The notes beneath the pieces are model-generated. The model was not told where the DNA came from. It saw only the letters and a program-made list of their open reading frames with translations, and searched no databases. Positions 35,857-50,137 of a DNA stretch of 64,000 bases are shown here, piece after piece. The translations under genes were made by a program, and so were the position numbers. The stretch comes from Streptomyces tsukubensis (GTDB taxonomy: Bacteria > Actinomycetota > Actinomycetes > Streptomycetales > Streptomycetaceae): the NCBI RefSeq assembly GCF_009296025.1, contig NZ_CP045178.1, positions 4,650,001 to 4,714,000 on the forward strand, given 5' to 3'. The stretch's first letter is position 1. Every line of letters starts with the position of its first letter.

Positions 35857-35930
35857 GCCGCCTTAGCTCAGTTGGCCAGAGCAACGCACTCGTAATGCGT
35901 AGGTCTCGGGTTCGAATCCCGAAGGCGGCT
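35857..35930 (+). tRNA. tRNA-Thr (anticodon CGT)
   Basis: 74 nt. The acceptor stem GCCGCCT pairs with AGGCGGC. The D-arm is GCTCAGTTGGCCAGAGC, the anticodon arm ACGCA-CTCGTAA-TGCGT with CGT in positions 34-36, and the T-arm TCGGG-TTCGAAT-CCCGA. CCA is not encoded. It is followed directly by a CCCCAGG/CCTGGGG terminator with TTTTT. Its 3' half is the insertion site of the island that follows. Confidence 0.97.
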
Positions 35931-35972
35931 CCGGAGAACCCCAGGACTCACTCGCCGTGACCTGGGGTTTTT
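35889..35972 (+). repeat. attL: 84-bp direct repeat, left copy
   Basis: Runs from the anticodon loop of tRNA-Thr through its terminator. It is identical over all 84 bases to 49,751-49,834. A core covering a tRNA 3' end is typical of tyrosine-recombinase islands and lets the tRNA be rebuilt after insertion. Confidence 0.93.
35939..35972 (+). terminator. Rho-independent terminator of tRNA-Thr
   Basis: 7-bp stem CCCCAGG/CCTGGGG followed by TTTTT. It lies inside the duplicated attachment core, so a second copy exists at 49,801-49,834. Confidence 0.85.
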
Positions 35973-36034
35973 GCTTTGCCCGGGGCGAAATCGGGCAGGG
36001 GGAGCCGCACGGCGCGGAACGCCGTGACGGGGCT

Positions 36035-36070: not shown

Positions 36071-36279
36071 CTACTTCTTGGGCCGTTTGGTCTTGCCCTT
36101 TTTCTTGCTCCGACCGTCGGGGCCTGGGCTTTCGCCTTGGTCTTCGCCTTGGCCTTCGCCTTCTCGGTGGCCTTCGCGGCTTTGCGGGCAGCCCCCTCGG
36201 CCTCGGTACGCCGCCGAAGCGGCACCAGTTGGGCCGTGGCCTCTGCGGCGCTCTTGCCGACGTGGGGGAGGACGCTTAA
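36071..36279 (-). pseudogene. remnant of a Lys/Ala-rich protein gene
   Basis: The minus frames encode GKSAAEATAQLVPLRRRTEAEG, split here only by a missing start, then KATEKAKAKAKTKAKAQ. After one frame change the sequence continues as DGRSKKKGKTKRPKK and a stop at 36071. This looks like the basic C-terminal tail of a larger gene cut off at the left of the island and then frameshifted. I do not recognise the family. Confidence 0.4.
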
Positions 36280-36406
36280 TGGTGACGTCGGGTATTGGAA
36301 CTGTCTGAATGGGTGTTGTCGCAGTCCACGGGGTGAGAAGGCTGGGCCCTCTTGGCGGCGGAAAGTCGGTCGCTTCTTGCCGACGAGTGCGTGAGAATCC
36401 GGCACC

Positions 36407-36937
36407 ATGACGATCTTGGCGCGTGATCTTCTGCTGGAGCGGTTCCGGTGGGTTGATGGCCACGCAGACATGTGGCCGCTCTTTCGGGATGGCGATGCTT
36501 TTCGCACGGTTGTTCGGGCATTGGTGGCACCGTTCCGCGACGCTGGGGTGACGGGCGTGTGCGGGATCGAGTCGCGAGGGTTCCTGCTTGGAGGGGCAGC
36601 GGCGCTGGAGCTGGGCGTGGGCTTTGTCGCCGTGCGGAAGGCCGGTGGCATGTTCCCCGGCGAGAAGCTCGTCCGGGAAACGAAGCCGGACTATCGGGGG
36701 ATCCGGCACTCGCTGCGGATCCAGCGCGCGTCGCTGGGGGCAGCAGACCAGGTTCTGTTCGTGGATGACTGGATCGAGACTGGGAACCAGGCCCTAGCCG
36801 TTCGGGATCTGGTGAGCTCTGCGGGTGCGGAACTGGCTGGATGCGCCGTCGTCGTCGACCAGATGCAGTCGAACTCCAAGGAGACGCTGGGACGTTTTCA
36901 TGCGCTCGTGACCAGCGACGAACTTCCGGACGCTTGA
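36407..36937 (+). CDS. adenine-phosphoribosyltransferase-like type I PRTase
   Basis: 176 residues with the type I PRTase fold: GVCGIESRGFLLGGAAAL (the APRT-like hood and nucleobase side), VAVRKAGGMFPGEKLV, and the PRPP loop FVDDWIETGNQAL, where DDxxxTG is kept. Such enzymes join or split a base and PRPP; the base is not certain. It is the first intact gene of the island, convergent with the broken recombinase gene (19-bp gap). I see no clear ribosome site before the ATG. It may be a cargo gene with a role in nucleotide salvage or signalling. Confidence 0.8.
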   Translation: MTILARDLLLERFRWVDGHADMWPLFRDGDAFRTVVRALVAPFRDAGVTGVCGIESRGFLLGGAAALELGVGFVAVRKAGGMFPGEKLVRETKPDYRGIRHSLRIQRASLGAADQVLFVDDWIETGNQALAVRDLVSSAGAELAGCAVVVDQMQSNSKETLGRFHALVTSDELPDA

Positions 36938-36956
36938 TCGCATTGTGCTGTGGCGT

Positions 36957-39203
36957 TCATCGACTGCGTCGGCTGACTTCGGCCACGTAGGTGGCCCAGT
37001 CGCCCGCTGAGAGACGTTGCCAGGCGACAGCGATGTCGGTGTGGATGCCGAGTGTGCGGGCGAGGATCCCGGCCGGGATCTCGGTGGCGAGTTGGAAGAG
37101 CGCGGTGCTGCGAGCCTGGTTGGGCCGGATCCCGAGCTGGTTCAGCCGTTGGGTCGGCTGGGTGGTGCTGATCGGCCGTCCGGGCTGGCCGCCGAGGAAG
37201 AGCCATGGAGACGGAGCCAAGGCCCCGATGGTCGCGTGACCCTTGCGGTTCGCGGCAACCACGCGGGCCAGTGCGGCGACGGGCTCAGGCAGCTGGACGG
37301 GGGCCTCGCCGAGATGGAGACGTACTTCCTGGGCGCCGGCCTCGACGTCCTCGATGGGCAACCGGCTGATCGCTGAGGGTCCTTGGGCATAAAGGAGGAG
37401 AAGGAGTCCTGCGAGGCGGTCTTCTGCTTTGAGGGTGTCGTCGTGCAGGAGTCGGCGTGCGACGTTCCACCGGTGCTCGTCATCGAGTGGCTGGGTGGGG
37501 CCGTGCCAGCGGGCAGCGGGGACGTGGACGGTGGTGAGCTTGTTGGCGCGAGCCCAGCGGACGAAGTGCCCGGCTGTGTGGCGGTAGGTCGCGGAGTCGT
37601 CGGACCAGGTGCCATATCGCCTACTGGTGAAGGACTTTGCGCTGTTCGGGGTCTTCCTGTGATGCGAGAAGGCCGGTGAGGAAACGTTCGATGCGGACCA
37701 TGTACTCGTCCCGCTCGGGCAGGGCACCGACGCCGACAAGGACTTGGCGGAGGTGGGCGAGGGGCGGGCTGTCGGGCAGCTCGTCGAGGGCCTCGTGAGT
37801 CAGGGCTCGTCTGCCGGCCGCGAGGTCGGCCAGGACCGGAGACACGGACGGCTTGTTCAGCCACCGATTGGCGGTGAGTGGATGCTCGGTGGTGGCGATG
37901 CTGTTCCGCAGCGCTTCGAGACCGGGGTGGAGGGCATCGGACGGAGGCCCCAGGAGCTCGTTGAGGCGCCGATTGATGAGGCAACGAGCGCACTGACCGG
38001 GGTGCGGGTAATCGGGATCGCTGCAGGTAGGGCAGGTGTGCCAGACCTCAGGCGCGGTGCAGCCCAGGCAAAGGGGCTGGTCGGGAGTGCCGGAGACGAC
38101 CGCCGCGACGCCGCCGCGAGGCCGAGCACGGCGCGGAGTGACGCCGGCAGTCCAGGCACCATGGCCGACCCGTAGTCCGGGAAGTGCCGCAGCGTTTCTC
38201 CGCGTCGCAGATACTGCAAGTCGCGGTGGAAAAGGAGGGGCAGCCTTGGCAGAGCGGGCCATCCGGTGTGCGGGTGTTCACGACCCTTCATCGGCCGCAG
38301 TTGATGCAGGTCTCCAGGGTCGCCGGGTCGCTGACCAGACAGTTCGGACACACTGGCCGGCCCTGGTCGTCGCGGCTGGCGGGCTCTCGGCGGGCTCCGC
38401 ATCCCGAGCACTCCTCAATGCGGGAGTGGGAGATGCACATGCGGCAGACCCGCTTTCCGTCCAGAGGCTTGTCGATGCGTACGCCCCTGTGGCAGCCGGG
38501 GCAGGACGGCCGGACGATCCCGGCGACGCCGGCCTCGTGCAGCAGGTCGATCAGTTTGAGGATCGCGCGGTGGGGTGCGAGGTGACCGTCGCCGGTCAAC
38601 AGAGCTGGGTGAGATTCCAGGGTCCAGACAAGTTTCCGCTGGTAGGAGGGACGAGGTGCCGATCGACGGACCGCGTCGGAGACCGTCTCCCGTTCGGCCT
38701 GCGGATCCAGTTCAGCGATCAGGGCGCCGATCACTGCGATGGGGTCACGTCCGTCGTCGTCCGGGCACTTGCCGCATCGCGGCCGCCCGGTCCTGTCGCG
38801 TGAAGCGACCCGGCGGGTGTTTCCGCGGGCAGCACACGGCTCGTGCTGTGGCCGCCCGCAGTTCCAGCAGTACCAGTCCTGGCCGCGGCGCTGGAGCGTT
38901 CGTATCTGCCTGCCGCATTCGGCGCAACACGGCGGCGAGACCGTCTGGGCCCCGGCCTCACGCAGAGCGATGAGCAGGTCGCCGACCGGCCCTGGGCGCC
39001 GGCGAGCGACCGTCGTTCAGCACGCGAGGATGCTCAGTGAGATGTGCCGCGAGGAGACGTGACTTCGAGCGTCCGCCCGCGACGCTGGCGACCACGGCAC
39101 GGATCCGGTCCGGCTCCAGCTGATGTTCGATGGCCGCGACCAGGTCCGCAATGAGCCCGATCGGGTCGGAGACGGCCCGCTCGGAGTGCCCGGGTGCGGT
39201 CAC
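36957..39203 (-). pseudogene. large zinc-ribbon tyrosine-recombinase-like protein, multiply disrupted
   Basis: Third gene of a coupled trio: its GTG at 39203 overlaps the stop of the HTH gene (GTGA). Read across frames it would give about 740 residues. The N-terminal helical part (IGLIADLVAAIEHQLEPD) is followed by at least five CxxC pairs (CCAECG, CWNCG, CPGCH, CMCISH, CPNC, CINCG, CLGC, CPTC), then a recombinase-like C-terminus (LLLLLYAQGPSAISRL, GIRPNQARSTALFQLATEIPA). The breaks are: frameshift near 38,990; TGA at 38288-38290; frameshift near 38,100; TAG at 37621-37623; frameshift near 37,600. So many lesions make sequencing error unlikely. Confidence 0.8.
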
Positions 39204-39541
39204 GGCCGCTCGAAACTACTGATGCGGGCTCGCTTGGGTCGCAGGTCACCGACGCCTGCCTCGGCACCGACAGCCTTCTTTGTTCGGGTAGCGGTTCCGG
39301 CACTCGCCGCGGCGGTCGGCTCGATGAGGTCGTCCATGGTGCAGCTGAGGATGTCGAGCAGGGCCATGAGGATCTTCAGGCTGAGCCGCTCGGGGCGCTC
39401 GACGACGAGCCGGTAGACCTGGCTGGACGACAGGGTGATGCCCCGTTTGTCCAGGAGCGGGATGAGGTCGGTGGTGGAGAAGAGCCCACGGTCGGCCATG
39501 ACCTTGCGCAAGTGCCAGTGGTAGTCGAGCTTCGCGGCCAT
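39200..39541 (-). CDS. small HTH (Cro/CI-like) protein of the recombinase trio
   Basis: 113 residues. The core LIPLLDKRGITLSSSQVYRLV, split at a short loop, followed by LSLKILMALLDILSCTMDDLIEP, is the Cro/CI-type helix-turn-helix of small XRE proteins. The Ala-rich, Lys/Arg-rich tail has no motif. It is encoded between the integrase and the zinc recombinase with overlapping stop and start codons on both sides (TGATG and GTGA), so the three were translated as a unit. It likely controls or assists recombination, as an excisionase- or TnpC-like partner; that role is inferred. Confidence 0.82.
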   Translation of the reverse strand: MAAKLDYHWHLRKVMADRGLFSTTDLIPLLDKRGITLSSSQVYRLVVERPERLSLKILMALLDILSCTMDDLIEPTAAASAGTATRTKKAVGAEAGVGDLRPKRARISSFERP

Positions 39542-40668
39542 CAGCGGTCCTTGTCTGCGGGGATCGGGGCGAGCGCGGGCGCGAGTGCCTTGTGGAGCAT
39601 GGTGTTCATGAAGTCGTCACTGACGTGGGTGTAGATGGCGGTGGAGCTGTCGTTCTCGTGAACGACTTGCTGCTGGAGAAACCGCCGGTCAACCCCGTCC
39701 TCGGTGGGGTGGGTGACGTAGGAGTGCCGAGCGGAGTGAACGGTCAGCGCCTGCGGGAGATTCAGCGCGTCGCGGTAGACGACGAACCGGGCGTTGATCT
39801 CGGCCGGCTTGACCCGACCGCCCCGCTCGGTCACCCACAAGGCGGGGTGATCCGCGCAGCCGAACCGCGGCCGTACGTTCTCCACGTAATCGGCGACCGC
39901 GTCCACCGCCCAGTCCATCACCGACAGCACGTTCCGACGACGCGGCGGCTGCCACTTCTTCGCTTTGACGTAGCGGACGTTGAGGGTGCCGTACCGGCCG
40001 AACTGCGGTGCCTTCGCGTTCCGCCCGAAGTCGACCACATCCAGCTTCGACGTCTCCGTCCGGCGCAGGCCCCACCCATAGATGACCTTGAAGAGGGTGG
40101 CATCTCGGCAGGCGGCGAGGGCTCCCTTGCGCTTGGCCCGTACCGCTCGATCGACCTGATCGTCGGCGTAGTCAAGGAAGCGCTGGGCCTCCTCGCGGGT
40201 GAACGGCCTGGCCTCGGGGCGCCCCTCGTGGTCGTTGAGGTGGGCGATGGTGTTCCACTCGTGGCAGATGGCCACGGGGTGAGTGCCGAAGGCGTCCTCG
40301 CAGGCCATCGACCAGCCGTAGCGGCCGTCGATCAAGAACCCGCTGAACAGGCGCAGGCTGCCCTGATAGCTGCGGATCGTGGAAGGCGCGAGGTGCTTCT
40401 CGCTGGTCAGCCAAAGGGACCACTCGTCCACGTGGCCAGCCGTCCAGGCCCACGGGTATTCGTTGGTGTGCTCCAGAAACCGCCGTACGAGCCGTTCCCG
40501 GGCGGTGACCGTGTCCTCACGGAGCCCACGAGCGGCCTGCTTGGCCCGCCAGCCCCGCACCATCGCTTCGACCATCGCGTCCTGCGGACGCAACTGGGCC
40601 ACTCCGGAGACCAGTTCCCGGTGAGCTGCCCCCGCCAGGTCGGCGCGTCGCTGTAGACCCACTTTCAC
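39541..40668 (-). CDS. tyrosine recombinase/integrase
   Basis: 375 residues, apparently intact. The N-terminal SAM-like DNA-binding domain (LREDTVTARERLVRRFLEHT) is followed by the catalytic domain with Arg I in YGWGLRRTETSKL, the HxxR box HSARHSYVTH, the second His in QVVHENDSST and the nucleophile Tyr in AIYTHVSDDF. It belongs to the family found in actinobacterial three-gene modules with a small HTH protein and a large zinc-ribbon recombinase, comparable in layout to Tn554 tnpA-tnpB-tnpC. It would cut and join attachment sites by a covalent 3'-phosphotyrosine. It is the only intact recombinase in the island. Confidence 0.9.
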   Translation of the reverse strand: MKVGLQRRADLAGAAHRELVSGVAQLRPQDAMVEAMVRGWRAKQAARGLREDTVTARERLVRRFLEHTNEYPWAWTAGHVDEWSLWLTSEKHLAPSTIRSYQGSLRLFSGFLIDGRYGWSMACEDAFGTHPVAICHEWNTIAHLNDHEGRPEARPFTREEAQRFLDYADDQVDRAVRAKRKGALAACRDATLFKVIYGWGLRRTETSKLDVVDFGRNAKAPQFGRYGTLNVRYVKAKKWQPPRRRNVLSVMDWAVDAVADYVENVRPRFGCADHPALWVTERGGRVKPAEINARFVVYRDALNLPQALTVHSARHSYVTHPTEDGVDRRFLQQQVVHENDSSTAIYTHVSDDFMNTMLHKALAPALAPIPADKDR

Positions 40669-40726
40669 CCTCCCCTTCAGAGGGCAAATCCTGCATCAAA
40701 CGGGATCTGATCGCCAAACTCCCAGC

Positions 40727-41541
40727 TCAAGCCGCCAAGTTGCAGGAGGGTAGAGTCATCGTCGGACCCTGCCCTGACCTCGCAACCTGCGATTTCTCGC
40801 CCGTCTGATGCAATTCCTGGGGGTTCTGGTAGATGTCCCGGGTGATCCGGGTGTCACTGTGCCCGAGCGCGTCCGACACGATCTTGATGTCGATGCCGGC
40901 GGCGAGCATGAGGGTGGCCGCGCCGTGCCGGAGGTCGTGCAGCCGGATCGGCGGGAGGCCGGAGGCGGCGACCATGCGCTCGAAGAGGTCGTTGACCTTG
41001 CCGGGGTGGAGCCAGGAGCCGCCTTCCTGGGTGAAGACGTGACCGGTGTCGACCCAGGCCGTACCCCACTTCTCGCGGGCTTTGTCCTGACGCTCGCGGT
41101 GGCGCTTCAGGATGTCGACAGTGTCGTCGTCGAGCGCGATCACGCGATAGCCGCTGTCCGTCTTGGGATCAGACGCCTCTATCTCCCAGCCGTCCTGGAC
41201 GAGTTGGGAGGAGACGGTGAGGGAGCAGGGCGTCGAGGTTCGTCTCCGACCACGGCTGCCCGCACGCCTCGCCTCGGCGCAGGCCGCGGACGGCAATCAG
41301 GTGCCACATCGCGTACAGCCGGTCCTCGGCGACGACATCGAGGAAAGTTCCGGTCTGTTGGGGCGTCCAGACCGTCACGGGCGAGAGCTTCTCGCCCGTC
41401 TGCTCCCACTTGGCGACCCGCTCGTCCGTCCACACGAGCGCCTTCGCCTTGCGCACGGGGTCGATCTCGACGTGGGCGGCCGGGTTGAACGTGATGATCT
41501 GCTGCCCGATCGCATCGTTCAGGGCCGCGCGGAGGGTGCCT
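40727..41541 (-). pseudogene. 3' half of a pSAM2/AICE-type integrase, frameshifted
   Basis: The coding signal begins abruptly at TLRAALNDAIGQQIITFNP with no N-terminal domain. It continues through TVWTPQQTGTFLDVVAEDRLYAMW and the Arg I box AVRGLRRGEACG, then shifts frame near 41,230 and goes on as DPKTDSGYRVIALDD, LHDLRHGAATLML, ALGHSDTRITRDIYQ. So the catalytic residues are present but split over two frames and the arm-binding half is lost. The cut point at about 41,541 lies next to the nested inverted repeat at 41,547-41,596. It is a relic of an earlier integrative element. Confidence 0.85.
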
Positions 41542-41546
41542 TAACG

Positions 41547-41596
41547 CGGTATTGCGCCCCGGCCCACAGAACAAGCGTGGGCTCGGCGCAATACCG
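41547..41596. terminator. nested inverted repeat at the endonuclease 3' end
   Basis: Outer arms CGGTATTGCGCC (41547-41558) and GGCGCAATACCG (41585-41596) are exact. Within the loop GCCCAC/GTGGGC forms a second 6-bp stem. It lies 11 bp after the stop of the restriction endonuclease and directly at the break of the dead integrase. It can act as a terminator. Its place at a junction also allows a recombination-site origin. Confidence 0.6.
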
Positions 41597-41607
41597 GTTC
41601 AGCGAGG

Positions 41608-42492
41608 TCATTCGTCTGAGTCGTCGCCCTCATCCTCGTCGTCCATGTCGTTCTTGCCAGGCTTCTTCGTCTCCGGGGTCTGATCTGAGACCCCTTCGGG
41701 ACGGTAGTAGCGTCGTGCGCTGGGGTAGGGCGAAGGGCTGTCGTCGTACATGATCACCCATCCGAGCAAGCCACAGATCTGCCACTTGCCATGCAGATGT
41801 TGTGCGATGAATCGAAACGCCTCGTCTGCTGTCATGTCTGCATGGGGGACAGTGACCATCTGCGTCTTGAAAACAGCTGACTGTTTGAAGCGGAAGAGAA
41901 ACGGTAGGCCGCGCTTGATATCCCAAAGTACCGAATGCAGCGACTGAACCCCAGGAGAGAGACCCTGTACTTTGCGGGATAGGTCGATGGGGAAAGCTAG
42001 ATCGAAATGAGTGTTCTTGATCTTTGTTCGGTCGCGATTTCGACCGGTGTCGTTGTTTCCGAATCCGCGATTATTCCATACGACCTTTCCGTTCTTCAGG
42101 TGCTCTTTGATGAGCATTTTTTCGGGAGAAACCGAGGAAAGGTCTTCTTCGACGAATAGGCACTTAAAGGACATCTCATCAATGGAGATATTTTCTCGCC
42201 CGGACAATTTGTAAAGGTGGTTTCCGAGGCGCTTCGGGAGTGGCTCGTCAGCTTTCCCGACGTAGGCGAGTTGACGTTCTTTTCCGGGTTCCTGGCGGAA
42301 GAGTTGGTACACCCCAGCCATGCTGGGGAGGCCGAGCTTCTCGGCTTGCGGGGCGAGTGCCTCCAGGTTCGGCCGCGTGAGGGGCGCGGGCTCTAGGCGG
42401 GACAGGGCGGCGTACAGCTGTTTGCTAAGTGCCTCCGTGATGCTAAGGCGGAATTGATCGCTGAACTGGTCGGCCATGTGAACACCCGTCAT
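41608..42492 (-). CDS. Eco29kI-family GIY-YIG restriction endonuclease
   Basis: 294 residues. The GIY-YIG core is clear: GVY (60-62) and YVG (77-79), Arg88 and His92 in KRLGNH, catalytic Glu130 in LIKEHL, and the Asn-rich WNNRGFGNN (139-147), the pattern of Eco29kI-type enzymes, which cut CCGCGG. The C-terminal 30 residues are acidic (DDEDEGDDSDE). Site specificity here is inferred from the family only. It is divergent from its methyltransferase across 108 bp. An ATG at 42477 is an alternative start. GC content is lower than the core genome, especially 41,900-42,250, pointing to transfer. Confidence 0.87.
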   Translation of the reverse strand: MTGVHMADQFSDQFRLSITEALSKQLYAALSRLEPAPLTRPNLEALAPQAEKLGLPSMAGVYQLFRQEPGKERQLAYVGKADEPLPKRLGNHLYKLSGRENISIDEMSFKCLFVEEDLSSVSPEKMLIKEHLKNGKVVWNNRGFGNNDTGRNRDRTKIKNTHFDLAFPIDLSRKVQGLSPGVQSLHSVLWDIKRGLPFLFRFKQSAVFKTQMVTVPHADMTADEAFRFIAQHLHGKWQICGLLGWVIMYDDSPSPYPSARRYYRPEGVSDQTPETKKPGKNDMDDEDEGDDSDE

Positions 42493-42600
42493 CCATAAAA
42501 CGCCTGATGGCGGTCACCTTATCGGGTGGACCTGGGGGACACGCGACGCAAGTTTCGGGATGTGTCACGATGATCACTAACTCCGCGGTACGCTTCCCTC
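42493..42600. promoter_or_regulatory. divergent promoter region of the R-M genes with a CCGCGG site
   Basis: This 108-bp gap must hold both promoters. CCGCGG at 42583-42588 ends 12 bp before the methyltransferase ATG. If the enzyme recognises CCGCGG as its relatives do, methylation of this site could tune its own expression. No separate C-protein gene is present. Confidence 0.45.
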
Positions 42601-43917
42601 ATGTCTGAGCTGCGGCAAGAATGTCAAGAGGTGGGTACATGTGTCGAGCTGTTTGCCGGCGGCGGGGGGCTCGCGATGGCTGTGCACACCGCGGGCTTCC
42701 GTCCGCTCCTGGTGAATGAATACGCCAAGCGGGCCTGTGAGTCTCTGCGGATCAATCCGCCCGACCCAAACAGGCCCGATGAGCGTTGGCCTCTGGTGCC
42801 GGGGGATGTGCGTGATGTCGACTACGGGAAGCACATCACCGGCGAGGTTGATGTCCTCGCGGGCGGGCCGCCCTGTCAGCCGTTCAGCCTTGGCGGTGCC
42901 CACAAGGGCGTGGAAGACGAGCGGAACATGTTTCCGGAGATGTTCCGTGCCATTCGGGAGTTGAGTCCGAAGGCAGTAATTTGCGAGAACGTACGTGGTC
43001 TTCTCCGTCCCTCTTTTAAGCCATACTTTAAATATATCCTGAACGAGATGCGTCTGCCATTCGAGAAGCGGAGTGAGGAGGCATCGTGGGAAGACCATAA
43101 CGAAATTCTTGAAAAGCTGATCGCCAATGAAGACGTTGAGCCGTCGAAGCGGTACTTCGTGCGGGAAATGGAAGTAAACGCAGCTGACTATGGTGTACCG
43201 CAGATCCGGAATCGAGTGATCATAGTCGCGTTCCGGGCCGACCTAAATGTCAACTGGGGTGCCTTCATGCCCAAGGAGACGCACTCCGAGGAATCAATGA
43301 TCCACTCCATGCGGGAAGGTGGATCCTACTGGACGGAGCGACACAAGGAGGTGCCCCCAGAAGTCCGAAAGCGTGTGATCGCCAATCTTCCTAAACTCAA
43401 CTATGAGGATCCGAAGGTAAAGCAAAAGCTGACGCTTACGCCGTGGCGCACTCTGCGCGACGCCATCGTGGGAATTGACGAGAATGAGGGAAGGCCGCTT
43501 CCGTATGTTACGGCGGAAGCTGTCAAAAACAAGTTTGAAATCGGTGGCATTCGCGATCACATTGGGTGGCCCGGGGCCCGTACGTACGCCGGGCACACTC
43601 CGAATGTGCTGGATCGGCCGGCGAAGACCGTGAAGGCCGGTGTGCATGGCGTGCCGGGCGGCGAATCAGTCATGCAGCTCGACGACGTCGACTTCGTCAA
43701 CGATGGTGGCGGAACCGGATACCGATACATGACCGTTCGGGAGGCCGCGCGGGTCATGACCTTCCCTGACCACGTGGTCCTCGACGGACCTCGGGGCGAG
43801 AAGATGCGGCAGTTGGGCAACGCTGTACCGGTGAAGCTCGGTGCCGTCTTCTCTCAGGCCGTCGCCGAAGCGCTCAAGTCCGTAGGGGCTCTGAAGGACC
43901 CGGAGAAGCGGAAGTGA
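42601..43917 (+). CDS. DNA (cytosine-5) methyltransferase
   Basis: 438 residues with the ordered C5 motifs: I CVELFAGGGGLAMAV (14-28), IV LAGGPPCQPFSL with nucleophile Cys92, VI VICENVRGLL (ENV, 129-131), VIII QIRNRVIIVAF, a recognition domain, IX RPAKTVKAGVHGVPGG and X GNAVPVKLGAVF. It protects the host from the divergent Eco29kI-like nuclease. Its TGA overlaps the GTG of the Vsr gene, so these are coupled. Third-position bias is weaker than in core genes. Confidence 0.95.
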   Translation: MSELRQECQEVGTCVELFAGGGGLAMAVHTAGFRPLLVNEYAKRACESLRINPPDPNRPDERWPLVPGDVRDVDYGKHITGEVDVLAGGPPCQPFSLGGAHKGVEDERNMFPEMFRAIRELSPKAVICENVRGLLRPSFKPYFKYILNEMRLPFEKRSEEASWEDHNEILEKLIANEDVEPSKRYFVREMEVNAADYGVPQIRNRVIIVAFRADLNVNWGAFMPKETHSEESMIHSMREGGSYWTERHKEVPPEVRKRVIANLPKLNYEDPKVKQKLTLTPWRTLRDAIVGIDENEGRPLPYVTAEAVKNKFEIGGIRDHIGWPGARTYAGHTPNVLDRPAKTVKAGVHGVPGGESVMQLDDVDFVNDGGGTGYRYMTVREAARVMTFPDHVVLDGPRGEKMRQLGNAVPVKLGAVFSQAVAEALKSVGALKDPEKRK

Positions 43918-44696
43918 CCGAAGCCGCCCACGATAGGCAGAGGCGTTGGAAGGACCGAATGCCTCCCGAACGGGTGTGGAAGCCCCGAGCGGGCATGACC
44001 AAGGCATCCCGAGTGGCTGAGCAGGACCGAGCCGCTGGTGGCCGCCACTCGCGGGCGGTCGATGTCGGTGAGGGGAGGTACGCCCGCGCGTCGGTCGCGC
44101 TGCGCCTCTACCGCAGCACTCGTCGCATCCGCGCCTATCTGCGGTGGTCACAGGAGGGCCAGACGCGGGAACGCTATGTCGGTGAAGTGAACGCGGCGAC
44201 GCGCGCCGCGAACTTGGCGCAAGCCTGGGCGATGGCGCGGGCCGCCGGGTACGTATCCGTTGAGACCGTCCCACCCAACTCGTGGGCATCATCACCGGCG
44301 TCTCGTGCGGTCATGTCCGCCAACAAGGGACGGGATACGAAGCCGGAACGTCTCCTACGGTCCGCTCTTCACCGCAAAGGGCTTCGCTATCGGGTCTCAG
44401 CGAGGCCGATCGCAGACCTTCGGCGTACGGCCGATGTCGTGTTCACCAAGACCCGTGTGGCCGTGTTCGTTGATGGCTGTTTTTGGCACGGTTGCCCCGA
44501 GCATCATCGGCCCGCCACCAAGCGGGCCGAATTTTGGCAAGAGAAGGTCGAGGGGAACCGAGCCCGCGACGCCGACACGAACGCGGCGCTGAACGCGCAG
44601 GGTTGGACCGTCGTACGGGTCTGGGAACACGAGGATGCCGAGGTGGCGGCCGAGCGGATCAACCTAGTTGTGAGAGAGCGGGCGGGCGGCGCCTAA
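43914..44696 (+). CDS. vsr: Vsr-type very-short-patch repair endonuclease with N-terminal extension
   Basis: 260 residues. The last 125 are Vsr: MSANKGRDTKPERLLRSALH, ADVVFTKTRVAVFVDGCFWHG with the metal-binding Asp and the His, CPEHH, and GWTVVRVWEHE. Vsr nicks beside T:G mismatches produced when 5-methylcytosine deaminates, so it repairs the mutations caused by the linked C5 methyltransferase. The first 135 residues form an added domain with RRIRAYLRWSQEG and TRERYVGEVNAATRAANLA, a segment I have no firm family for. Translational coupling to the methyltransferase (GTGA) supports joint function. Confidence 0.9.
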   Translation: MTEAAHDRQRRWKDRMPPERVWKPRAGMTKASRVAEQDRAAGGRHSRAVDVGEGRYARASVALRLYRSTRRIRAYLRWSQEGQTRERYVGEVNAATRAANLAQAWAMARAAGYVSVETVPPNSWASSPASRAVMSANKGRDTKPERLLRSALHRKGLRYRVSARPIADLRRTADVVFTKTRVAVFVDGCFWHGCPEHHRPATKRAEFWQEKVEGNRARDADTNAALNAQGWTVVRVWEHEDAEVAAERINLVVRERAGGA

Positions 44697-44857
44697 CGTT
44701 CTCCCCTTGGCCATCCCAAGGCGGGCTGTAGAGGAGCCTGCCTGAGTGGTCGCGTGCTGACCGGACTTGACCCCTGATGTCAGTGCTGTGCGGTATCTCT
44801 TAGTGGAGCTGGATGAACTGGGGTCCTTTCAGCAACACTTCAGAAGGGAGCAGCGCT
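44697..44857. promoter_or_regulatory. gap before the MORC gene
   Basis: 161 bp between vsr and the MORC gene. It includes CCCCTTGGCCATCCCAAGG, a weak hairpin. The spacing suggests a separate promoter for the last three genes, but no clear -10/-35 pair is seen. Confidence 0.3.
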
Positions 44858-47266
44858 TTGTCGACTGACACCACAGGGGACCTGTTCGAGGAGATCGACC
44901 TCACGCCATCTCCGCAACTGCTGGAGGCATTGGGAGACATCCCCTACAAGCCGTGGCAGTGTCTGGCGGAGCTGATCGACAACTCCTTCGACGACTTCCT
45001 GACGGACCCGGACCGGAGCGAGGCGCAGGAGGTCTGGATCACTCTGCCGAAGCCCACTGACGACGACCCGATCGTCGGTCTGCTCGATAACGGGCGGGGT
45101 ATGAGCCCAGAGATGCTGCAGAGCGCGCTGAAGGCTGGCTATAGCGGCAAAAGGCGATATGGCAGTCTAGGGCTGTTTGGCATGGGCTTCAACATCGCCA
45201 CGGCCCGTCTGGGCCACCACACTGAGGTGCGGACCACAAGGGCAGGCGACCCAGACTGGCTTATCGTGGAGATCGACCTGCGCCGCCTCGCACAGAACGA
45301 CAGTTTCAGGACACCTCTCCGGCGGGAGCCCAAGCGAGACGTCTCCGATCATGGCACCGAAGTGATCGTCCGCCGTCTGCGCACCGAGATCGCCGAGGAC
45401 CTCAAGAAGGCCAATCGGCATGCTTCGGTCCGAGCTGATCTCGGTCGCGTCTACTCGTACCTGTTGCGCGGCGAGAACCCGATTCCCGGTGTTCCGGACG
45501 GCCCGATGGCGGGGCGCGGCTTTCGGCTGAAGGTGAACGGAAAGACCGTCTCGCCCAGGCTGCCCTGCGTCTGGTCGGCGTCGCGCACGGTGACCAAGGA
45601 GGGGAGGGAGATCGCCGCTGTCCGGTCCGTCGACATTGCGCTGGCGTCGGCGCTGGCGTGCATGAAGTGTGGCCACTGGCAGAGCCCGGACCTTGCCCTG
45701 GACCGGTGTGCGGAGTGCGACGGCGACGACATGCAGCTGCGCGAGCGGCGCATCCACGGCTGGTTCGGGGTTCAGCGTTACCTGGACGAGAGTGACTACG
45801 GAATCGACTTCCTGCGCAATGGCAGGAAGATCCGGATTGGAGACCGCTCCCTGTTCTCCTGGGAGAACCCGAACGACGGGACTCAAGTCCCGGAATACCC
45901 AGTGGATATCCCCGCCACTCAGGGCCGCATCGTAGGCGAGGTTCACCTCGATCACGTCCCGGTGGGTTACCAGAAGACCGACTTCAACCGGGAGAGTCGC
46001 GACTGGCGTCACGCTGTTTTCGCGTTGCGTGGCGAGGGGCCGATGCGCCCAAAGAAAGCCAAGACGCTGGGGTACGCGTTGAACGCCTCGCCCCTCGGAG
46101 AGATTTTCAAGGGATACCAGGAAAACCGCCCGGGTGCTGGTTGCCTGATTCCCGGAAATGGCAGCACGGCCATCCACGAGACGGCTCGGGATTGGGGCGC
46201 GAAGTTCCACTCTGGAAAGCATCCGGAGTTCCTCTCGGATGAGATCTGGTACCAGGCGGTGCTGGCTCACGATGACAACCGAGGCAATGGAGGGGCAACT
46301 ACGCGGCCGACTGGCAATGGTGGAGCCGACGGGCCTTCGTTGACCGGGCGGACCGGACTGACACCTCTGGGGGGCGCGCCGGCCGGCAGCTCCGACCAGA
46401 CCGGCACGGCGCCCACACCGACACCCATCTCGACACCTGAGCCCGAGCCGGTGGAGACAGAGGAGCAACGCTTCGAGCGTTACCGCACTGACGCCCGTCA
46501 GATCTTTGACCTGACGGGTGAGGTGACGTTGCCGCGACTTGGCCGTAAAGCCGTGACGGTCTACGAGACGAGCGCGCCCTTGCTGGACGATCGCGAACGG
46601 CCGGTCCCCTCGCTGGCCCGTCTGGGGAAGGGCGTAAATCTGGAGGTGTTCGTCTACGGTGAGCACCTCGTATTCCGCGAGTATGGACGCGATCCGCGCG
46701 ATTACGCGTTGATGGAGATCGCACAGACCTTGCACGCTTTCGAACCGGACGGGCAGAAGGTGACAGCGGTCGCGGCTGAGGTCACACGACAGTTTCCTGA
46801 CCAACGGGTCACTGAGTCAGCGCTAAGGGACCGGGCTGGCTCAGTGTTGGGCCGAGTACGCGAGCTGATGACGCCCATCGTCGTGCCAATGGCCAACGAA
46901 CTCTGGGAGGCCGTGCCAGAGGTTGTCAGGCTGCGTGCTGAGCGCGATGCAGGGCGAGCCGACGCGTCTCTGGACTGGCCCACCGTCGTCAAGGACGGGG
47001 CTTTCGTGGCTCACTTGGACGCTGCCGGGATCGCGGCTGTTGTCCGGATGCGTCCGGCCGCCTTCCTGGACGGAGCGGTGTTCACGACGTCCTGGAGTGG
47101 CTGGTCGGACACTGCGGTCAAGGACAGGCAGGTGGCGCAGACCGTGCGTCCCCTGGAGGTTGTCAGTGAATTCCTGACCGACCCGGGTGCGAAGACTCGA
47201 CTGGAGCTCTCCTTGGCACGGATCACCTTCGACATGCTCGAACAGAGCGTTGCCGGACCGGTGTGA
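44858..47266 (+). CDS. MORC/MutL-like GHKL ATPase with Cys4 insert
   Basis: 802 residues from the TTG at 44858 (site AGAAGGGAG eight bases before; an ATG at 44813 is open too). GHKL ATPase: N box LAELIDNSFDDF (37-47, Glu38 and Asn42), G1 VGLLDNGRGMS (73-83), G2 SLGLFGMGFN (103-112). An S5-like domain follows. It is interrupted by a Cys4 module, CMKCGHW and CAEC (Cys268, 271, 284, 287). The C-terminal part past residue 465 is a separate region after a Pro/Thr linker. Iyer, Abhiman and Aravind (2008) described such MORC relatives in R-M operons. It probably clamps DNA by ATP-driven dimerisation. Confidence 0.88.
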   Translation: MSTDTTGDLFEEIDLTPSPQLLEALGDIPYKPWQCLAELIDNSFDDFLTDPDRSEAQEVWITLPKPTDDDPIVGLLDNGRGMSPEMLQSALKAGYSGKRRYGSLGLFGMGFNIATARLGHHTEVRTTRAGDPDWLIVEIDLRRLAQNDSFRTPLRREPKRDVSDHGTEVIVRRLRTEIAEDLKKANRHASVRADLGRVYSYLLRGENPIPGVPDGPMAGRGFRLKVNGKTVSPRLPCVWSASRTVTKEGREIAAVRSVDIALASALACMKCGHWQSPDLALDRCAECDGDDMQLRERRIHGWFGVQRYLDESDYGIDFLRNGRKIRIGDRSLFSWENPNDGTQVPEYPVDIPATQGRIVGEVHLDHVPVGYQKTDFNRESRDWRHAVFALRGEGPMRPKKAKTLGYALNASPLGEIFKGYQENRPGAGCLIPGNGSTAIHETARDWGAKFHSGKHPEFLSDEIWYQAVLAHDDNRGNGGATTRPTGNGGADGPSLTGRTGLTPLGGAPAGSSDQTGTAPTPTPISTPEPEPVETEEQRFERYRTDARQIFDLTGEVTLPRLGRKAVTVYETSAPLLDDRERPVPSLARLGKGVNLEVFVYGEHLVFREYGRDPRDYALMEIAQTLHAFEPDGQKVTAVAAEVTRQFPDQRVTESALRDRAGSVLGRVRELMTPIVVPMANELWEAVPEVVRLRAERDAGRADASLDWPTVVKDGAFVAHLDAAGIAAVVRMRPAAFLDGAVFTTSWSGWSDTAVKDRQVAQTVRPLEVVSEFLTDPGAKTRLELSLARITFDMLEQSVAGPV

Positions 47267-47269
47267 GCG

Positions 47270-48943
47270 ATGACTGCCAAGTTCATGGCGCTGGACTTCC
47301 TGCGCAGGGTAGGACCGTTCGGTTTCACTCGCCAGCTGGAGCGGCTAGCACTTCACCTGGGCTTCACCGACGTCGTCAACATTGACGGTGCGAACGATCA
47401 GGGTGGCGACATTCTCGCCACTCGCGAGGGCCGTTTGTGGGTGTTCCAAGCCAAGTGGAAAGAGGGAGCGGCGGTCCCACCCAGTGCCATCGACGAGGTC
47501 TTGGAGGCCAAAGCCCACTATGGCGCCGACCACGCCGTAGTGGTCACTAACAGCCGCTTCGGTCCGCTTACCCACAAGCGCCGCGACAGCCTCGCGGCGG
47601 TCGGCATGCGGGTGGAACTTTGGGCGGACCAGGAACTGGCTGACCTCTACTCGGACGACCGATTCGCAGCCGAGCGGCTGCCGTCGCGCAGGCTACGCCC
47701 CTACCAGGGCGAGGCTTTGCGGGCGGTGATTGGCGACTTGGAGAGCGCCGACCGTGCCTTGTTGATCCTCGCAACCGGCCTGGGGAAGACAGTGGTTGGC
47801 GGGGAGGTCATCGATCGCCACCTGCGCCAGAGCCCTCAGGACAAAGTCCTGATCGTCGCCCCGGCAAAGGATCTGGTGGAGCAGCTTGAGCGAGCACTGT
47901 GGCACCACCTGCCCAAGAGCGTGCGCACTCAGCTTTTGACCGGCGACCACCGTCCTGACGACCTGCGAGGCGTTACTTGCGCAACCCCAGCGAGTGCTCT
48001 CAGCTACGCTCGCGCTGGCTACCGACCTGCGCTGGTCATGGTCGACGAAGCACATCACGTCTCCGAGGATGGGCAACTGGCTGAGCTTCTTGATGTCCTC
48101 CACGCGAGTCAGATTTTTGGGGTCACGGCTACGCCCTGGCGCGGTGATCGCTTCGATATTCGCACGCGCTTCGGCGAACCCAGCTACACGCTGGGTATCG
48201 AGGACGGCATGCGGCTGGGTTACCTGTCCGAAGTCCGCTACCGGCTCTACTCGGACAACATCGACTGGGACTTCGTCCGTGGTGTCAGCGACCACAGCTA
48301 CTCGATCAAGGATCTCAACGCTCGCCTTTTCCTCCCTGAACGGGACGAAGGAGTGCGCGAGAAGCTGATGGAGGTATGGGGGCGCACCCAGCACCCCCGC
48401 GTGGTCGTCTTCTGCCGCACCATCGAACACGCCGAACGATTGGCGGCGCTGCTCGCCGAGGTGCCGCAGTGGCGCGGGGCGCTCGCCGTTCATGCGGATC
48501 TCAGCAAGCGGGAACGCCAGTCCCGACTGATGAGCTTCCGGAGCGGCGAGGTCCCGATCCTGACCGCCGTAGACATCCTCAACGAGGGTGTGGACATCCC
48601 GGACGTGAACATCCTCTGCTTCGCCCGAGTCACGCACAGCCGCCGGATCTTCGTCCAGCAACTCGGCCGCGGCCTGCGCCTGCGCCCGGGAAAGTCGCAC
48701 GTGGAGGTCCTGGACTTCGTCAGCGACATCCGCCGCATCGCCGCTATCTTGAACATCCGCCGGCAGATCGCCGAAGACGAAGTCGAGACCCTGCGTCTGC
48801 GGGAGCGCGGTACGAGCTTCGACTTCGCTGACAAGCGCGCGGAGAGCCTGATGCGTGAATGGATCGAGGACGCGGCCAGTCTGGAGACCTCGTTGGACAA
48901 GAGCCGTCTTCAGTTTCCCGACCCGGCTGCCTTTGGGGGGTGA
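47270..48943 (+). CDS. Mrr-like nuclease fused to SF2 helicase
   Basis: 557 residues. Residues 15-130 form a Mrr-type restriction-endonuclease domain: Glu24, GANDQGGDI (Asp47) and VFQAKWK (Gln60-x-Lys62). The helicase follows: LRPYQGEAL, Walker A ATGLGKT (168-174), DEAHH (259-263), GVTATPWRGD (284-293), VVVFCRTIEHAERL, and QQLGRGLRLRPGK with the arginine finger near 467. All catalytic residues look intact. It is a candidate DNA translocase that cuts. It starts three bases after the MORC stop, so the pair is certainly one operon. Confidence 0.9.
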   Translation: MTAKFMALDFLRRVGPFGFTRQLERLALHLGFTDVVNIDGANDQGGDILATREGRLWVFQAKWKEGAAVPPSAIDEVLEAKAHYGADHAVVVTNSRFGPLTHKRRDSLAAVGMRVELWADQELADLYSDDRFAAERLPSRRLRPYQGEALRAVIGDLESADRALLILATGLGKTVVGGEVIDRHLRQSPQDKVLIVAPAKDLVEQLERALWHHLPKSVRTQLLTGDHRPDDLRGVTCATPASALSYARAGYRPALVMVDEAHHVSEDGQLAELLDVLHASQIFGVTATPWRGDRFDIRTRFGEPSYTLGIEDGMRLGYLSEVRYRLYSDNIDWDFVRGVSDHSYSIKDLNARLFLPERDEGVREKLMEVWGRTQHPRVVVFCRTIEHAERLAALLAEVPQWRGALAVHADLSKRERQSRLMSFRSGEVPILTAVDILNEGVDIPDVNILCFARVTHSRRIFVQQLGRGLRLRPGKSHVEVLDFVSDIRRIAAILNIRRQIAEDEVETLRLRERGTSFDFADKRAESLMREWIEDAASLETSLDKSRLQFPDPAAFGG

Positions 48944-48950
48944 AGGATCG

Positions 48951-49541
48951 ATGAGTGACATCGACGAGGAGATCCGCCGCGAGGTGATCGCCGAAGTCTA
49001 CCGACAGGTCGACGAACTCGACTGGGACGGTATGACCCCGCGTGAGCGCTCTCAGTGGTATGTGCGTTGGATCGACGACCCACGCATTGGGGGCAAGCTC
49101 ACACGCTTCATCGAGCGCGATCGCGTCCGGGTGTGGATCAAGGATGGACCGATCAAAGAACTACCCAGGGCTCGCTACGGCATCGGCCCTTACGCGCAGT
49201 TCGCGGTCAGCCGCTACCCCGGGGTGGAGCAGATCGCACACCAGGCGATTGGGCCGGCCTGGGTTGCTGACCCTGAGACTGTTGACATCAAGCCCAACCG
49301 CTGCCTGGTCCGAGGGCCGGAATCGGACGTCCTGATGATCTGGGGGCCGGCGGCCAAGCTCGCCGATCTTGTGTGGGCCGGCATCAACGCTCGTGTTGAT
49401 GGCAGTGCTGAACCGCTCATCGTCGTTACCTCCCCTCAGGGAACGCGTCTCAGCGGAGGCGAGATGCTCCGGCAGAGGGTTCTCGCCAAGCAGGCAAGCA
49501 TCGAGCTGCGCCACATCACCCTGCGACTCGCCCGTGTGTGA
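48951..49541 (+). CDS. conserved-context small protein of unknown function
   Basis: 196 residues from the ATG at 48951 (GAAGGA site), seven bases after the helicase stop. No family is recognised. The first 60 residues are acidic and helical (DIDEEIRREVIAEVYRQVDE). The centre has a RYGIGPYAQFAVSRYPGVEQ segment and the C-terminus alternates short strands and helices (LMIWGPAAKLADLVW). No catalytic motif, membrane helix or zinc site is visible. By position it is the third member of the MORC/helicase unit, possibly an adaptor or the recognition part. The longer open frame back to 48855 overlaps the helicase and is not used. Confidence 0.75.
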   Translation: MSDIDEEIRREVIAEVYRQVDELDWDGMTPRERSQWYVRWIDDPRIGGKLTRFIERDRVRVWIKDGPIKELPRARYGIGPYAQFAVSRYPGVEQIAHQAIGPAWVADPETVDIKPNRCLVRGPESDVLMIWGPAAKLADLVWAGINARVDGSAEPLIVVTSPQGTRLSGGEMLRQRVLAKQASIELRHITLRLARV

Positions 49542-49750
49542 CGGCGACGCGCTCCAAGGCGCCGCCAGGTTCTCCGGAACGTGTACGCCAGCGATCGATG
49601 CCTGCACCAGTGTGCGTGAGCGATGCGTGAGCGGATGGGGTGGCACGAGATGGATTGAGTGGCACGCGGACTGAGTGGCATAGCCCGCTGGCCTGCAGAA
49701 ACGAGACTCTGCCGCATTCCTCAGCGCCACCCGTCACGATCTTGCAGGCC
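49542..49750. other. island right end: gene-free arm with repeats
   Basis: About 210 bp between the last cargo gene and attR. It holds the 22-bp repeat at 49,613-49,634 and three GTGGCA copies at 49,640, 49,659 and 49,675, two within TGAGTGGCA. Such repeats beside an attachment core are the usual form of integrase arm sites. No gene seen. Confidence 0.55.
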
Positions 49751-49834
49751 CTCGTAATGCGTAGGTCTCGGGTTCGAATCCCGAAGGCGGCTCCGGAGAA
49801 CCCCAGGACTCACTCGCCGTGACCTGGGGTTTTT
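49751..49834 (+). repeat. attR: 84-bp direct repeat, right copy
   Basis: Exact copy of 35,889-35,972, giving only the 3' part of tRNA-Thr (anticodon loop onward) plus the terminator. It cannot itself make a tRNA. Confidence 0.93.
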
Positions 49835-50137
49835 CCTTGTCCGGGCAAGCTAGGCCGCACGACGGGGACGCCGTGAAAGTGCTTGCATGAGCGATGCGTG
49901 AGCGGCGGGTTGACCAAGCCTGCCGCCATCCGTCGTCGGCACGCCCAACATGGCCAGGTGGGATCTCCCGACTGTTACATGCGCACCCCCTACCGGGCTC
50001 CGGGGTTTGGCGGGGGCATAGGAGGCGTGCCAAGCGCGTGCTGTACGGCAGCTGTGAAGCTCAGTCGTGTTCCCGCGTGTCGCTTCGAGCGGCCGCTGGC
50101 GGCGCGTCCAACGGTGCGGGTGCGACCGTCCTGCGGG
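49835..50137. other. sequence beyond attR resembling the island's left end, no gene
   Basis: The first 70 bp resemble the sequence after attL: both have GCCGCACG, then GACGCCGTGA-like text, then the TGAGCGATGCGTGAGCGG repeat (49,884-49,905, one mismatch in 22). The rest to 50,137 holds no supported gene. Confidence 0.55.

What the first reader, a model, noticed from the sequence alone, without database searches (positions are those of the whole stretch)
41608..49541. Composite defence cassette: Eco29kI-type R-M, Vsr, MORC ATPase, Mrr-helicase and an unknown protein
Six adjacent genes join a complete type II R-M pair, a mismatch nuclease and a tight MORC/Mrr-SF2/unknown trio with 3-7 bp gaps. 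MORC ATPases beside R-M genes were noted computationally (Iyer, Abhiman and Aravind 2008), but I know of no worked-out mechanism. The ATPase could clamp DNA while the helicase translocates and the Mrr domain cuts, perhaps as a second line when phage escape restriction through methylation.
Basis: partly seen in the sequence, partly recalled or inferred. Interest (0 to 1): 0.85.

Follow-up and report, generated by a model that had tools for sequence, protein, structure and literature searches.

The report
One DNA mark, two restriction effectors
A mobile element in a Streptomyces-like genome carries a DNA-marking enzyme that, in the related genomes examined, is accompanied by a three-gene ATP-powered machine, a simple cutting enzyme, or both, suggesting that the machine is an interchangeable way of attacking unmarked foreign DNA.

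Summary
The six genes are real and correctly placed, at one end of a 13.9-kb element inserted in tRNA-Thr. They are not one fixed cassette but exchangeable modules: (1) a trio MORC ATPase, Mrr/SF2 helicase, small protein ("DUF"); (2) a C5-methyltransferase with Vsr; (3) an optional Eco29kI-type nuclease. In 80 genome loci the helicase adjoins MORC in 80, DUF is found in 76, the methyltransferase in 77, the nuclease in only 33. Divergence correlates within modules (rho 0.68-0.84; 0.80), little between them (0.06-0.25). In 249 same-family genomes 19 carry this methyltransferase: 11 with trio and nuclease, 5 with trio only, 3 with nuclease only. Trio methyltransferases share a signature with that of Eco29kI (CCGCGG) and with the only C5 enzyme of Deinococcus plasmid pDrdI, which adjoins a trio and is almost certainly M.DrdVII (YCGCGR). 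I infer an ATP-dependent restriction effector held off self DNA by that mark and interchangeable with the nuclease, not a second line against methylated phages. The DUF looks PD-(D/E)xK-like but lacks conserved acids. A distant MORC-helicase pair without detectable DUF uses another methyltransferase. Such neighbourhoods were described computationally in 2008; I found no experiment. Biochemistry is untested.

The parts
35857..35932 (+). tRNA-Thr(CGT), integration target
   Evidence: ARAGORN
35886..35983 (+). attL-like copy of the 98-nt direct repeat (3' end of tRNA-Thr plus downstream)
   Evidence: 95% identical to 49748-49845; a 25-base core is repeated exactly
49748..49845 (+). attR-like copy, downstream end of the 13.86-kb element
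39541..40668 (-). tyrosine recombinase (Phage_integrase)
   Evidence: Pfam 5.9e-15
40727..41296 (-). second tyrosine recombinase, only its C-terminal part in this frame
   Evidence: Pfam 1.3e-14, profile positions 37-169 of 172
39200..39541 (-). Cro/C1-type HTH protein
   Evidence: HTH_26 9.9e-14
41608..42492 (-). Eco29kI-type GIY-YIG restriction endonuclease; optional module
   Evidence: Pfam 24.7 bits (below cut-off); catalytic residues aligned with the pECO29 enzyme; such a nuclease in 33 of 80 related loci
42601..43917 (+). C5-cytosine methyltransferase; family of M.Eco29kI and presumed M.DrdVII; predicted CGCG-core site
   Evidence: Pfam 1.3e-50; 40.5% identity to the pECO29 enzyme; 39% to the pDrdI enzyme; signature
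43914..44696 (+). Vsr T:G mismatch endonuclease with a ~125-aa N-terminal extension
   Evidence: TIGR00632 123.7 bits, over cut-off, residues 127-240
44813..47266 (+). MORC-like GHKL ATPase (start may be TTG 44858); conserved CxxC...CxxC in the middle
   Evidence: HATPase_c_3; nearest solved sequences MORC3/MORC4; best model matches MORC3/4/2; invariant E53, N57, D92, G94, G96, C283, C286, C299, C302 in 36 sequences
47270..48943 (+). Mrr nuclease-SF2 helicase fusion; D47, Q60, K62 and Walker K173 invariant in 80 sequences
   Evidence: numbers one lower
48951..49541 (+). third trio protein, 196 aa; helical N-terminal part, residues 89-194 PD-(D/E)xK-like without conserved acids

Best explanation
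The locus is a restriction system built around one m5C mark. The C5-methyltransferase marks host DNA, probably at CCGCGG or the wider YCGCGR; Vsr repairs the T:G mismatches that arise when m5C deaminates. Two separate effectors attack DNA without the mark: a simple Eco29kI-type nuclease, and the MORC-Mrr/SF2-DUF trio. SHOWN by sequence comparison: trio order and tight spacing, constant presence of this methyltransferase family in the closely related loci, interchangeability with the Eco29kI-type nuclease, conserved active sites. INFERRED: the DUF (a nuclease-like fold without conserved acids) helps recognise the unmethylated site; MORC closes as an ATP-driven clamp on DNA; the helicase translocates and its Mrr domain cuts. 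The modules communicate through DNA methylation rather than through co-diverging protein contacts.
For: 80 MORC-anchored loci (best 80 of 267 relatives): helicase 80, DUF 76 (3 of 4 misses, L019, L059, L060, are at contig ends), methyltransferase 77 (L059 and L060 are short contigs; L033 has methyltransferase and Vsr ~13 kb upstream), Vsr 75. MORC-helicase gaps -8 to +14 bp in 80 of 80, helicase-DUF within -30 to +150 in 72 of 75 measured; starts chosen by a simple rule. DUF-anchored: 16 of 249 same-family genomes; helicase next to DUF in 16, MORC, methyltransferase and Vsr nearby in 16. Methyltransferase-anchored, same 249: 19 at E 1e-70 or better; 16 are the trio genomes, the other 3 have the Eco29kI-type nuclease; Fisher p 1.5e-22 for 16/0/3/230, relatedness not corrected. 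Distances over 72 loci: within trio 0.68-0.84, MT-Vsr 0.80, between modules 0.06-0.25. Signature KAGxHGxxGGE in 78 of 78 trio methyltransferases (window included), in pECO29's and pDrdI's; in 1 of 18 methyltransferase frames at 20 other Vsr loci, and that one stands beside Eco29kI-type genes. pDrdI has one PF00145 gene, next to the trio; PMC6430315 (whole text) lists one 5mC enzyme there, M.DrdVII, YCGCGR, and no DrdVII endonuclease. Mrr D-QxK and SF2 motifs invariant.
Confidence: 0.57

Rival explanations
1. The trio is a repair aid for m5C deamination: MORC plays the part of MutL, the helicase that of UvrD, and the DUF (EndoMS-like fold) senses mismatches, all working with Vsr. Actinobacteria generally lack MutS/MutL (recalled), which would make such a helper plausible.
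For: Vsr found in 75 of 80 loci, and again beside the distant pair in G126; best structural match of DUF is the mismatch endonuclease EndoMS; GHKL kinship with MutL (PMC2292703).
Against: 143 of 249 genomes have Vsr over the cut-off but only 16 have the DUF. Of 20 other Vsr loci fetched, 19 show no trio member within their 12-kb stretch; the twentieth has the distant pair. L087's genome (MORC and helicase, no DUF found; a 1.9-Mb metagenome assembly, maybe incomplete) has no Vsr. Close-family trios track one methyltransferase family, not Vsr as such. A double-strand-cutting Mrr domain is an odd repair tool.
Confidence: 0.14
2. Type IV-like back-up: the trio attacks DNA with foreign modifications and the neighbouring methyltransferase is incidental or shared with other defence systems.
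For: Mrr_cat domain; helicase half matches PADLOC type IV models (mREase_IV 85.9 bits, after PbeA at 101.4) and the solved helicase 7clg, which I recall as the type IV enzyme SauUSI.
Against: The same methyltransferase family with the signature is present in 78 of 78 close-family loci not cut off by short contigs. A methylation-independent system would not need it, and an m5C-dependent one would attack its own host.
Confidence: 0.15
3. Safety or addiction module: the trio punishes loss of the methyltransferase (host killing when the mark fades) and thereby holds the mobile element in the genome, with phage defence a by-product.
For: Location on an integrative element and on plasmids typed conjugative; restriction logic makes this likely as a side effect; a Caulobacter study reports DNA damage dependent on a Vsr-like protein when a solitary methyltransferase is lost (PMC12907096, passages).
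Against: Does not by itself explain coexistence with a second effector (11 of 16 trio genomes), which would already do this.
Confidence: 0.1

Closest known systems
Prokaryotic MORC/paraMORC R-M neighbourhoods (Iyer, Abhiman and Aravind 2008, PMC2292703)
   Same: MORC-type GHKL ATPase, SF2 helicase with RE-fold nuclease domain, cytosine methyltransferase and Vsr; the paper's first operon type
   Different: In the parts read (1-3 of 4) no third small partner for this type, no exchange with an Eco29kI-type nuclease and no DNA motif is named; the word Mrr does not occur (count); its mechanism (DNA looping) is a proposal. Figures were not visible
Eco29kI R-M (pECO29)
   Same: C5-methyltransferase with the same signature, GIY-YIG nuclease of the same family
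   Different: pECO29 is a 3.9-kb plasmid with R and M only; no Vsr or trio hit
Presumed M.DrdVII locus, Deinococcus wulumuqiensis NEB 479, plasmid pDrdI
   Same: Methyltransferase directly followed by MORC, helicase and a distant DUF (63 bits); published motif YCGCGR
   Different: No Vsr and no Eco29kI-type hit in the 19.6-kb stretch; CBASS-like genes downstream; methyltransferase 39% identical
DISARM
   Same: C5-methyltransferase plus SF2 helicase in a defence island
   Different: No DrmA, DrmB or DrmC among the six window proteins; such genes occur as separate neighbours in some related loci
VcSduA / GHKL-Shedu (PMC12137116, passages)
   Same: GHKL ATPase coupled to a PD-(D/E)xK nuclease, shown experimentally to be antiphage
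   Different: Single protein with DUF4263, no methyltransferase
SauUSI-type ATP-dependent type IV enzymes (recalled)
   Same: SF2 motor fused to a nuclease
   Different: Modification-dependent, no partner methyltransferase (recalled)

Membership tests
Prokaryotic MORC R-M systems (Iyer 2008) | GHKL ATP-binding motifs, closest to MORC among GHKL proteins | tested here: met
   N-box E53/N57 and D92/G94/G96 invariant in 36 sequences; the only PDB sequences under E 0.01 are MORC3 and MORC4; first four model matches MORC3, MORC4, MORC2, MORC3, with Hsp90 types close behind
Prokaryotic MORC R-M systems (Iyer 2008) | MORC-specific GhXhhpXXRhl motif in the S5 domain | tested here: inconclusive
   GIDFLRNGRKI at 330-340 fits all but the hydrophobic place after R, which is K339 (sequence)
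Prokaryotic MORC R-M systems (Iyer 2008) | Neighbouring SF2 helicase carrying an RE-fold nuclease, with cytosine methylase and Vsr | tested here: met
Eco29kI type II R-M | GIY-YIG nuclease with counterparts of Y49, Y76, R104, H108, E142, N154 | tested here: met
   counterparts seen by eye in the alignment; residue list from PMC1952068 (passages); Pfam score below cut-off
Eco29kI type II R-M | Methyltransferase and nuclease act on the same site CCGCGG | not testable with these tools
   only the methyltransferase signature is shared with pECO29
DISARM | DrmA, DrmB (and DrmC) present | tested here: not met
   among the six proteins only the methyltransferase has Drm hits (DrmMII, 113 bits, against MTase_II 296; best 25 of 62 shown)
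PbeABCD | PbeA helicase with its partner proteins | tested here: inconclusive
   PbeA is the best PADLOC hit of the helicase (101 bits, two stretches); no other Pbe name appears among the hits shown for the six proteins
MZA (MzaB) | MORC protein over the NCBIfam cut-off for MzaB | tested here: not met
   15.6 bits against 850
Shedu with GHKL domain | DUF4263 nuclease domain | tested here: not met
   no such Pfam domain in MORC, helicase or DUF at E 0.01
Type III R-M | N6-adenine Mod subunit paired with a helicase-nuclease Res | tested here: not met
   the only methyltransferase among the six proteins is a C5-cytosine enzyme
PD-(D/E)xK nucleases (for the DUF) | fold | tested here: inconclusive
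PD-(D/E)xK nucleases (for the DUF) | conserved D...(D/E)xK active site | tested here: not met
   in residues 89-194 only one column is acidic in 60% or more of 77 sequences (E171, 65%); K114 and P115 are invariant
Very short patch repair module | Vsr with a cytosine methyltransferase beside it | tested here: met
   the trio is not part of the pathway as I know it

The most novel reading that the evidence does not exclude
The trio is an unrecognised class of ATP-dependent restriction effector: a catalytically dead nuclease-fold subunit reads the unmethylated CGCG-core site, a MORC clamp closes on the DNA, and an Mrr-helicase translocates and cuts. It obeys the same m5C mark as, and is freely interchangeable with, a simple GIY-YIG restriction enzyme, so that one methyltransferase serves two unrelated effectors that see only the mark and not each other. 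The distant pair in G126, with another methyltransferase and no detectable DUF, would fit the DUF being the site-specific part.
Probability: 0.38. Interest if true: 0.8.

Novelty: new variant of a known kind. Interest (0 to 1): 0.62.

Why it matters
Prokaryotic MORC ATPases, proposed ancestors of eukaryotic chromatin MORCs (PMC2292703), have no biochemical role that my searches found. This work supplies a defined three-protein unit, a predicted self mark (YCGCGR/CCGCGG), natural loci with and without a simple nuclease, and a culture-collection strain (D. wulumuqiensis NEB 479) in which the motif is already mapped, so the question becomes directly testable. It would also show that restriction effectors of quite different machinery can be swapped around one methylation mark.

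Tried and rejected
Rejected: 'six-gene fixed cassette'; 'trio only backs up Eco29kI' (5 of 16 genomes without it); 'any Vsr-methyltransferase pair attracts the trio'. Led nowhere: a viral-contig search with the helicase found 10 loci, only distant helicases (21-32%); phage records hold no DUF relative at E 1e-5; a phylum-wide DUF search found only the own genome among 396, which may reflect both rarity and the narrow DUF alignment. A first reading that some loci lack the methyltransferase failed for L033. The strict pattern with PGAR-Y-H before KAG matches 63 of 78, so I report the shorter one (78 of 78). Not done: motif avoidance, structure of the helicase or of complexes (cap), empty-site comparison for the element. 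MORC model confidence is middling (pLDDT 79, pTM 0.55). Literature: ten searches in the open library only; nothing in their listings describes this trio experimentally, but most of these papers were not opened, and subscription papers and REBASE are not covered. Read: PMC2292703 parts 1-3 of 4; PMC6430315 whole; passages of PMC8011034, PMC12137116, PMC1952068, PMC8112702, PMC6789123, PMC12907096, PMC3710099; term counts only (zero for MORC, GHKL, Mrr, Vsr) of PMC10853773 and PMC12839542.

Rows dropped: loci lacking any of the five families, L064, L068 and L082 by hand (partial Vsr; PIN-fused DUF; L082 without a good reason), and rows with DUF of 120 aa or less or Vsr of 80 aa or less; 72 of 81 remained. 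In one search the conservation counts use 77 DUF and 80 helicase rows of the 81 loci.
Full report
WHAT IS THERE. The window lies in an 8.63-Mb genome. Its genus is very probably Streptomyces: nearest proteins are from Streptomyces and Kitasatospora, and two 'same genus' genomes have contigs of the same length as Streptomyces albireticuli and S. griseoaurantiacus loci; I therefore call the family group of the searches Streptomycetaceae. The six genes at 41608-49541 are as described. They occupy the distal end of a 13.86-kb element: the 3' end of tRNA-Thr(CGT) at 35857-35932 and what follows it is repeated over 98 nt with 95% identity at 49748-49845, and tyrosine recombinase genes lie at 39541-41296. 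G+C is 0.58-0.65 in the 2-kb windows between 41 and 50 kb against 0.67-0.71 just outside.

THE TRIO IS A REAL UNIT. A search of genome contigs with a 36-row MORC alignment gave 267 relatives, of which the tool kept the best 80, so what follows describes the closer family. In these 80 loci the Mrr-SF2 helicase is present in 80, with gaps of -8 to +14 bp to MORC in 80 of 80 (starts chosen by a simple rule); the DUF is found in 76 of 80 (L019, L059, L060 end with their contig; in L087 the profile finds none), and 72 of 75 measured helicase-DUF gaps are within -30 to +150 bp. Anchoring on the DUF instead, 16 of 249 Streptomycetaceae genomes have it; the helicase is next to it in 16 of 16, and MORC, methyltransferase and Vsr are within the stretch in 16 of 16 (own locus, the other 15). 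The trio also occurs on four plasmids: Rhodococcus pLW4, Ruegeria, Pseudosulfitobacter and Deinococcus wulumuqiensis pDrdI (the DUF of the last three is distant, 63 to 97 bits); all four have a C5-methyltransferase of this kind, that of Pseudosulfitobacter a few kb away beyond insertion sequences.

THE CONSTANT PARTNER IS ONE METHYLTRANSFERASE FAMILY. Methyltransferase: 77 of 80 loci; two misses are short contigs (3.9 and 6.9 kb), and in the third (L033) methyltransferase and Vsr lie about 13 kb upstream with a short Eco29kI-like remnant. Vsr: 75 of 80. Eco29kI-type nuclease: 33 of 80. By identity the methyltransferases form two classes: class 1 (53 with the window) 32 with and 21 without the nuclease; class 2 (25) 2 with and 23 without. 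Fifteen class-2 loci are single-strand runs MORC>HEL>DUF>Vsr>MT. Among the neighbours of such loci that I scanned (in, one to three proteins for each of ten loci) no type II nuclease appeared, but a DISARM DrmC (L021), a helicase (L034), a GmrSD_N protein (L031) and an FRG protein (L057) did; other neighbours were judged by eye only.

RECIPROCITY. The window methyltransferase was searched in the same 249 genomes: 19 have a relative at E 1e-70 or better. Sixteen are exactly the DUF genomes. The other three (G031, G141, G169) show no trio member within about 20 kb and have the Eco29kI-type nuclease. Of the 16 trio genomes, 11 have the nuclease (window included; one, L122, with a short 138-bit hit) and 5 do not (L114, L115, L116, L118, L124). 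So the methyltransferase is found with trio and nuclease (11), trio alone (5), nuclease alone (3), neither (0). Fisher's test for trio against methyltransferase gives 1.5e-22, without correction for relatedness. For comparison Vsr over its cut-off is in 143 of the 249 genomes. Twenty Vsr loci elsewhere (12 kb each) were scanned: 17 methyltransferase frames score 102-215 bits on my profile, against about 450-650 for trio partners; the eighteenth is L162, the G169 locus just named; three loci show none. Nineteen of the 20 show no trio member. The twentieth, L163, had a MORC relative at its edge; a longer stretch (L211) shows MORC (435 bits) and helicase (472 bits) side by side, Vsr, a methyltransferase of the other kind (170 bits, no signature) and no detectable DUF. 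So more distant MORC-helicase pairs exist that go with other C5-methyltransferases; the link to one mark holds for the close family.

TWO MODULES. Over 72 loci, pairwise distances correlate strongly within the trio (MORC-HEL 0.84, MORC-DUF 0.69, HEL-DUF 0.68) and within MT-Vsr (0.80), but weakly between them (0.06 to 0.25); the largest of 200 permutations is 0.08 to 0.20 by pair, and HEL-MT, HEL-Vsr (0.25 each) and DUF-MT (0.14) exceed theirs, so a weak shared signal remains. Modules that are together yet hardly co-diverge most simply communicate through something other than protein contact, and the methylation mark is the obvious candidate. On a quick MORC tree, presence of the nuclease changes at least 14 times (loci cut by contig ends count as without).

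THE MARK. All 78 trio methyltransferases (77 loci and the window) carry KAGxHGxxGGE in the region before motif IX, as does L033's; so do those of pECO29, pDrdI, the Ruegeria, Rhodococcus and Pseudosulfitobacter plasmids, Paraburkholderia and N. gonorrhoeae. Of 18 methyltransferase frames at the 20 other Vsr loci only L162's has it. A relative in G635 (a 2148-codon frame, 522 bits) does not. Known sites: R.Eco29kI CCGCGG (PMC1952068, passages); M.DrdVII YCGCGR, the only 5mC enzyme listed on pDrdI (PMC6430315, whole text), where only one PF00145 gene exists and adjoins the trio; the equation of the two is mine. An m5C survey also reports YCGCGR for 'Deinococcus radiodurans' at 3,601 of 5,878 sites (PMC8112702, passages; they do not say that it is strain 479). 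CCGCGG is one form of YCGCGR. No DrdVII endonuclease is listed. I predict a CGCG-core site for the window enzyme; this is inference.

HOW IT PROBABLY WORKS. Host sites carry m5C. Incoming DNA does not. The nuclease cuts such sites directly; the trio, using ATP, recognises unmarked DNA, clamps, translocates and cuts. Two unlike effectors on one mark would be hard for a phage inhibitor to block together (speculation). Rival readings, above all a repair role with Vsr and a type IV role, are given separately.

RELATION TO THE LITERATURE. Iyer et al. 2008 (parts 1-3 of 4) described MORC genes beside Rad25-like SF2 helicases fused to RE-fold nucleases, with cytosine methylases and Vsr, and proposed DNA looping; about 70% of their MORC neighbourhoods had an SF2 helicase. 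The present trio fits their first type. The third protein, the exchange with Eco29kI, the module analysis and the motif were not in the parts read. The only wet-lab result on a GHKL-nuclease defence protein that I saw is VcSduA (PMC12137116, passages). Ten full-text searches listed no experiment on this trio.

Noticed in passing
L061, L065, L066, L068, L069, L070, L073, L076, L077, L078, L080-L088, L091: An extra gene with a sigma-70 region 4-like domain follows (in L076 precedes) the trio in 20 of 80 loci; Pfam was run on one member, L078's.
   Followed up: partly
L050, L055, L056, L068, L114, L115; L140 and L141 on plasmids: A DUF copy forms the C-terminal part of a ~500-aa protein with a PIN-like N-terminal part (by eye); in the two alphaproteobacterial plasmids a separate gene annotated PIN-like follows the DUF.
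   Followed up: partly
L021, L026, L037, L039, L041, L043, L046, L048, L053: DISARM-like genes lie near the trio; DrmB confirmed in L039 and DrmC in L021, the rest only by clustering with them.
   Followed up: partly
window 35857-49845; G640, G658, G654, G646, G649, G664, G638: tRNA-Thr looks like an integration hotspot: these relatives have a further partial copy of the tRNA 3' end some kb away on the same contig.
   Followed up: no
window 37621-40668; L087 5543-8583: Recombinase, small HTH protein and a cysteine-rich protein seem to form the same mobile three-gene set in the window and beside MORC in L087 (by eye).
   Followed up: no
window 43914-44290: Many Vsr proteins paired with class-1 methyltransferases match the window's over its ~125-aa N-terminal extension too.
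   Followed up: no
L064 6880-7566: A HhH-GPD base-excision protein (score at the cut-off) lies beside Vsr and the trio in a spirochete symbiont contig.
   Followed up: no
L142 11794-16599: A nucleotidyltransferase, E2-like, JAB-like and SAVED gene set (CBASS-like) follows the trio on pDrdI.
   Followed up: no
L024, L027, L090: Frankia loci carry different versions of the system next to similar two-component regulator genes, as if one site had been used repeatedly.
   Followed up: no
L211 9270-17577 (genome G126): A distant MORC-helicase pair with Vsr, a C5-methyltransferase of another family and a PIN-like protein (by eye) but no detectable DUF.
   Followed up: partly
L131, L134 (genome G635): A 2148-codon frame with a methyltransferase of this family that lacks the signature.
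   Followed up: no
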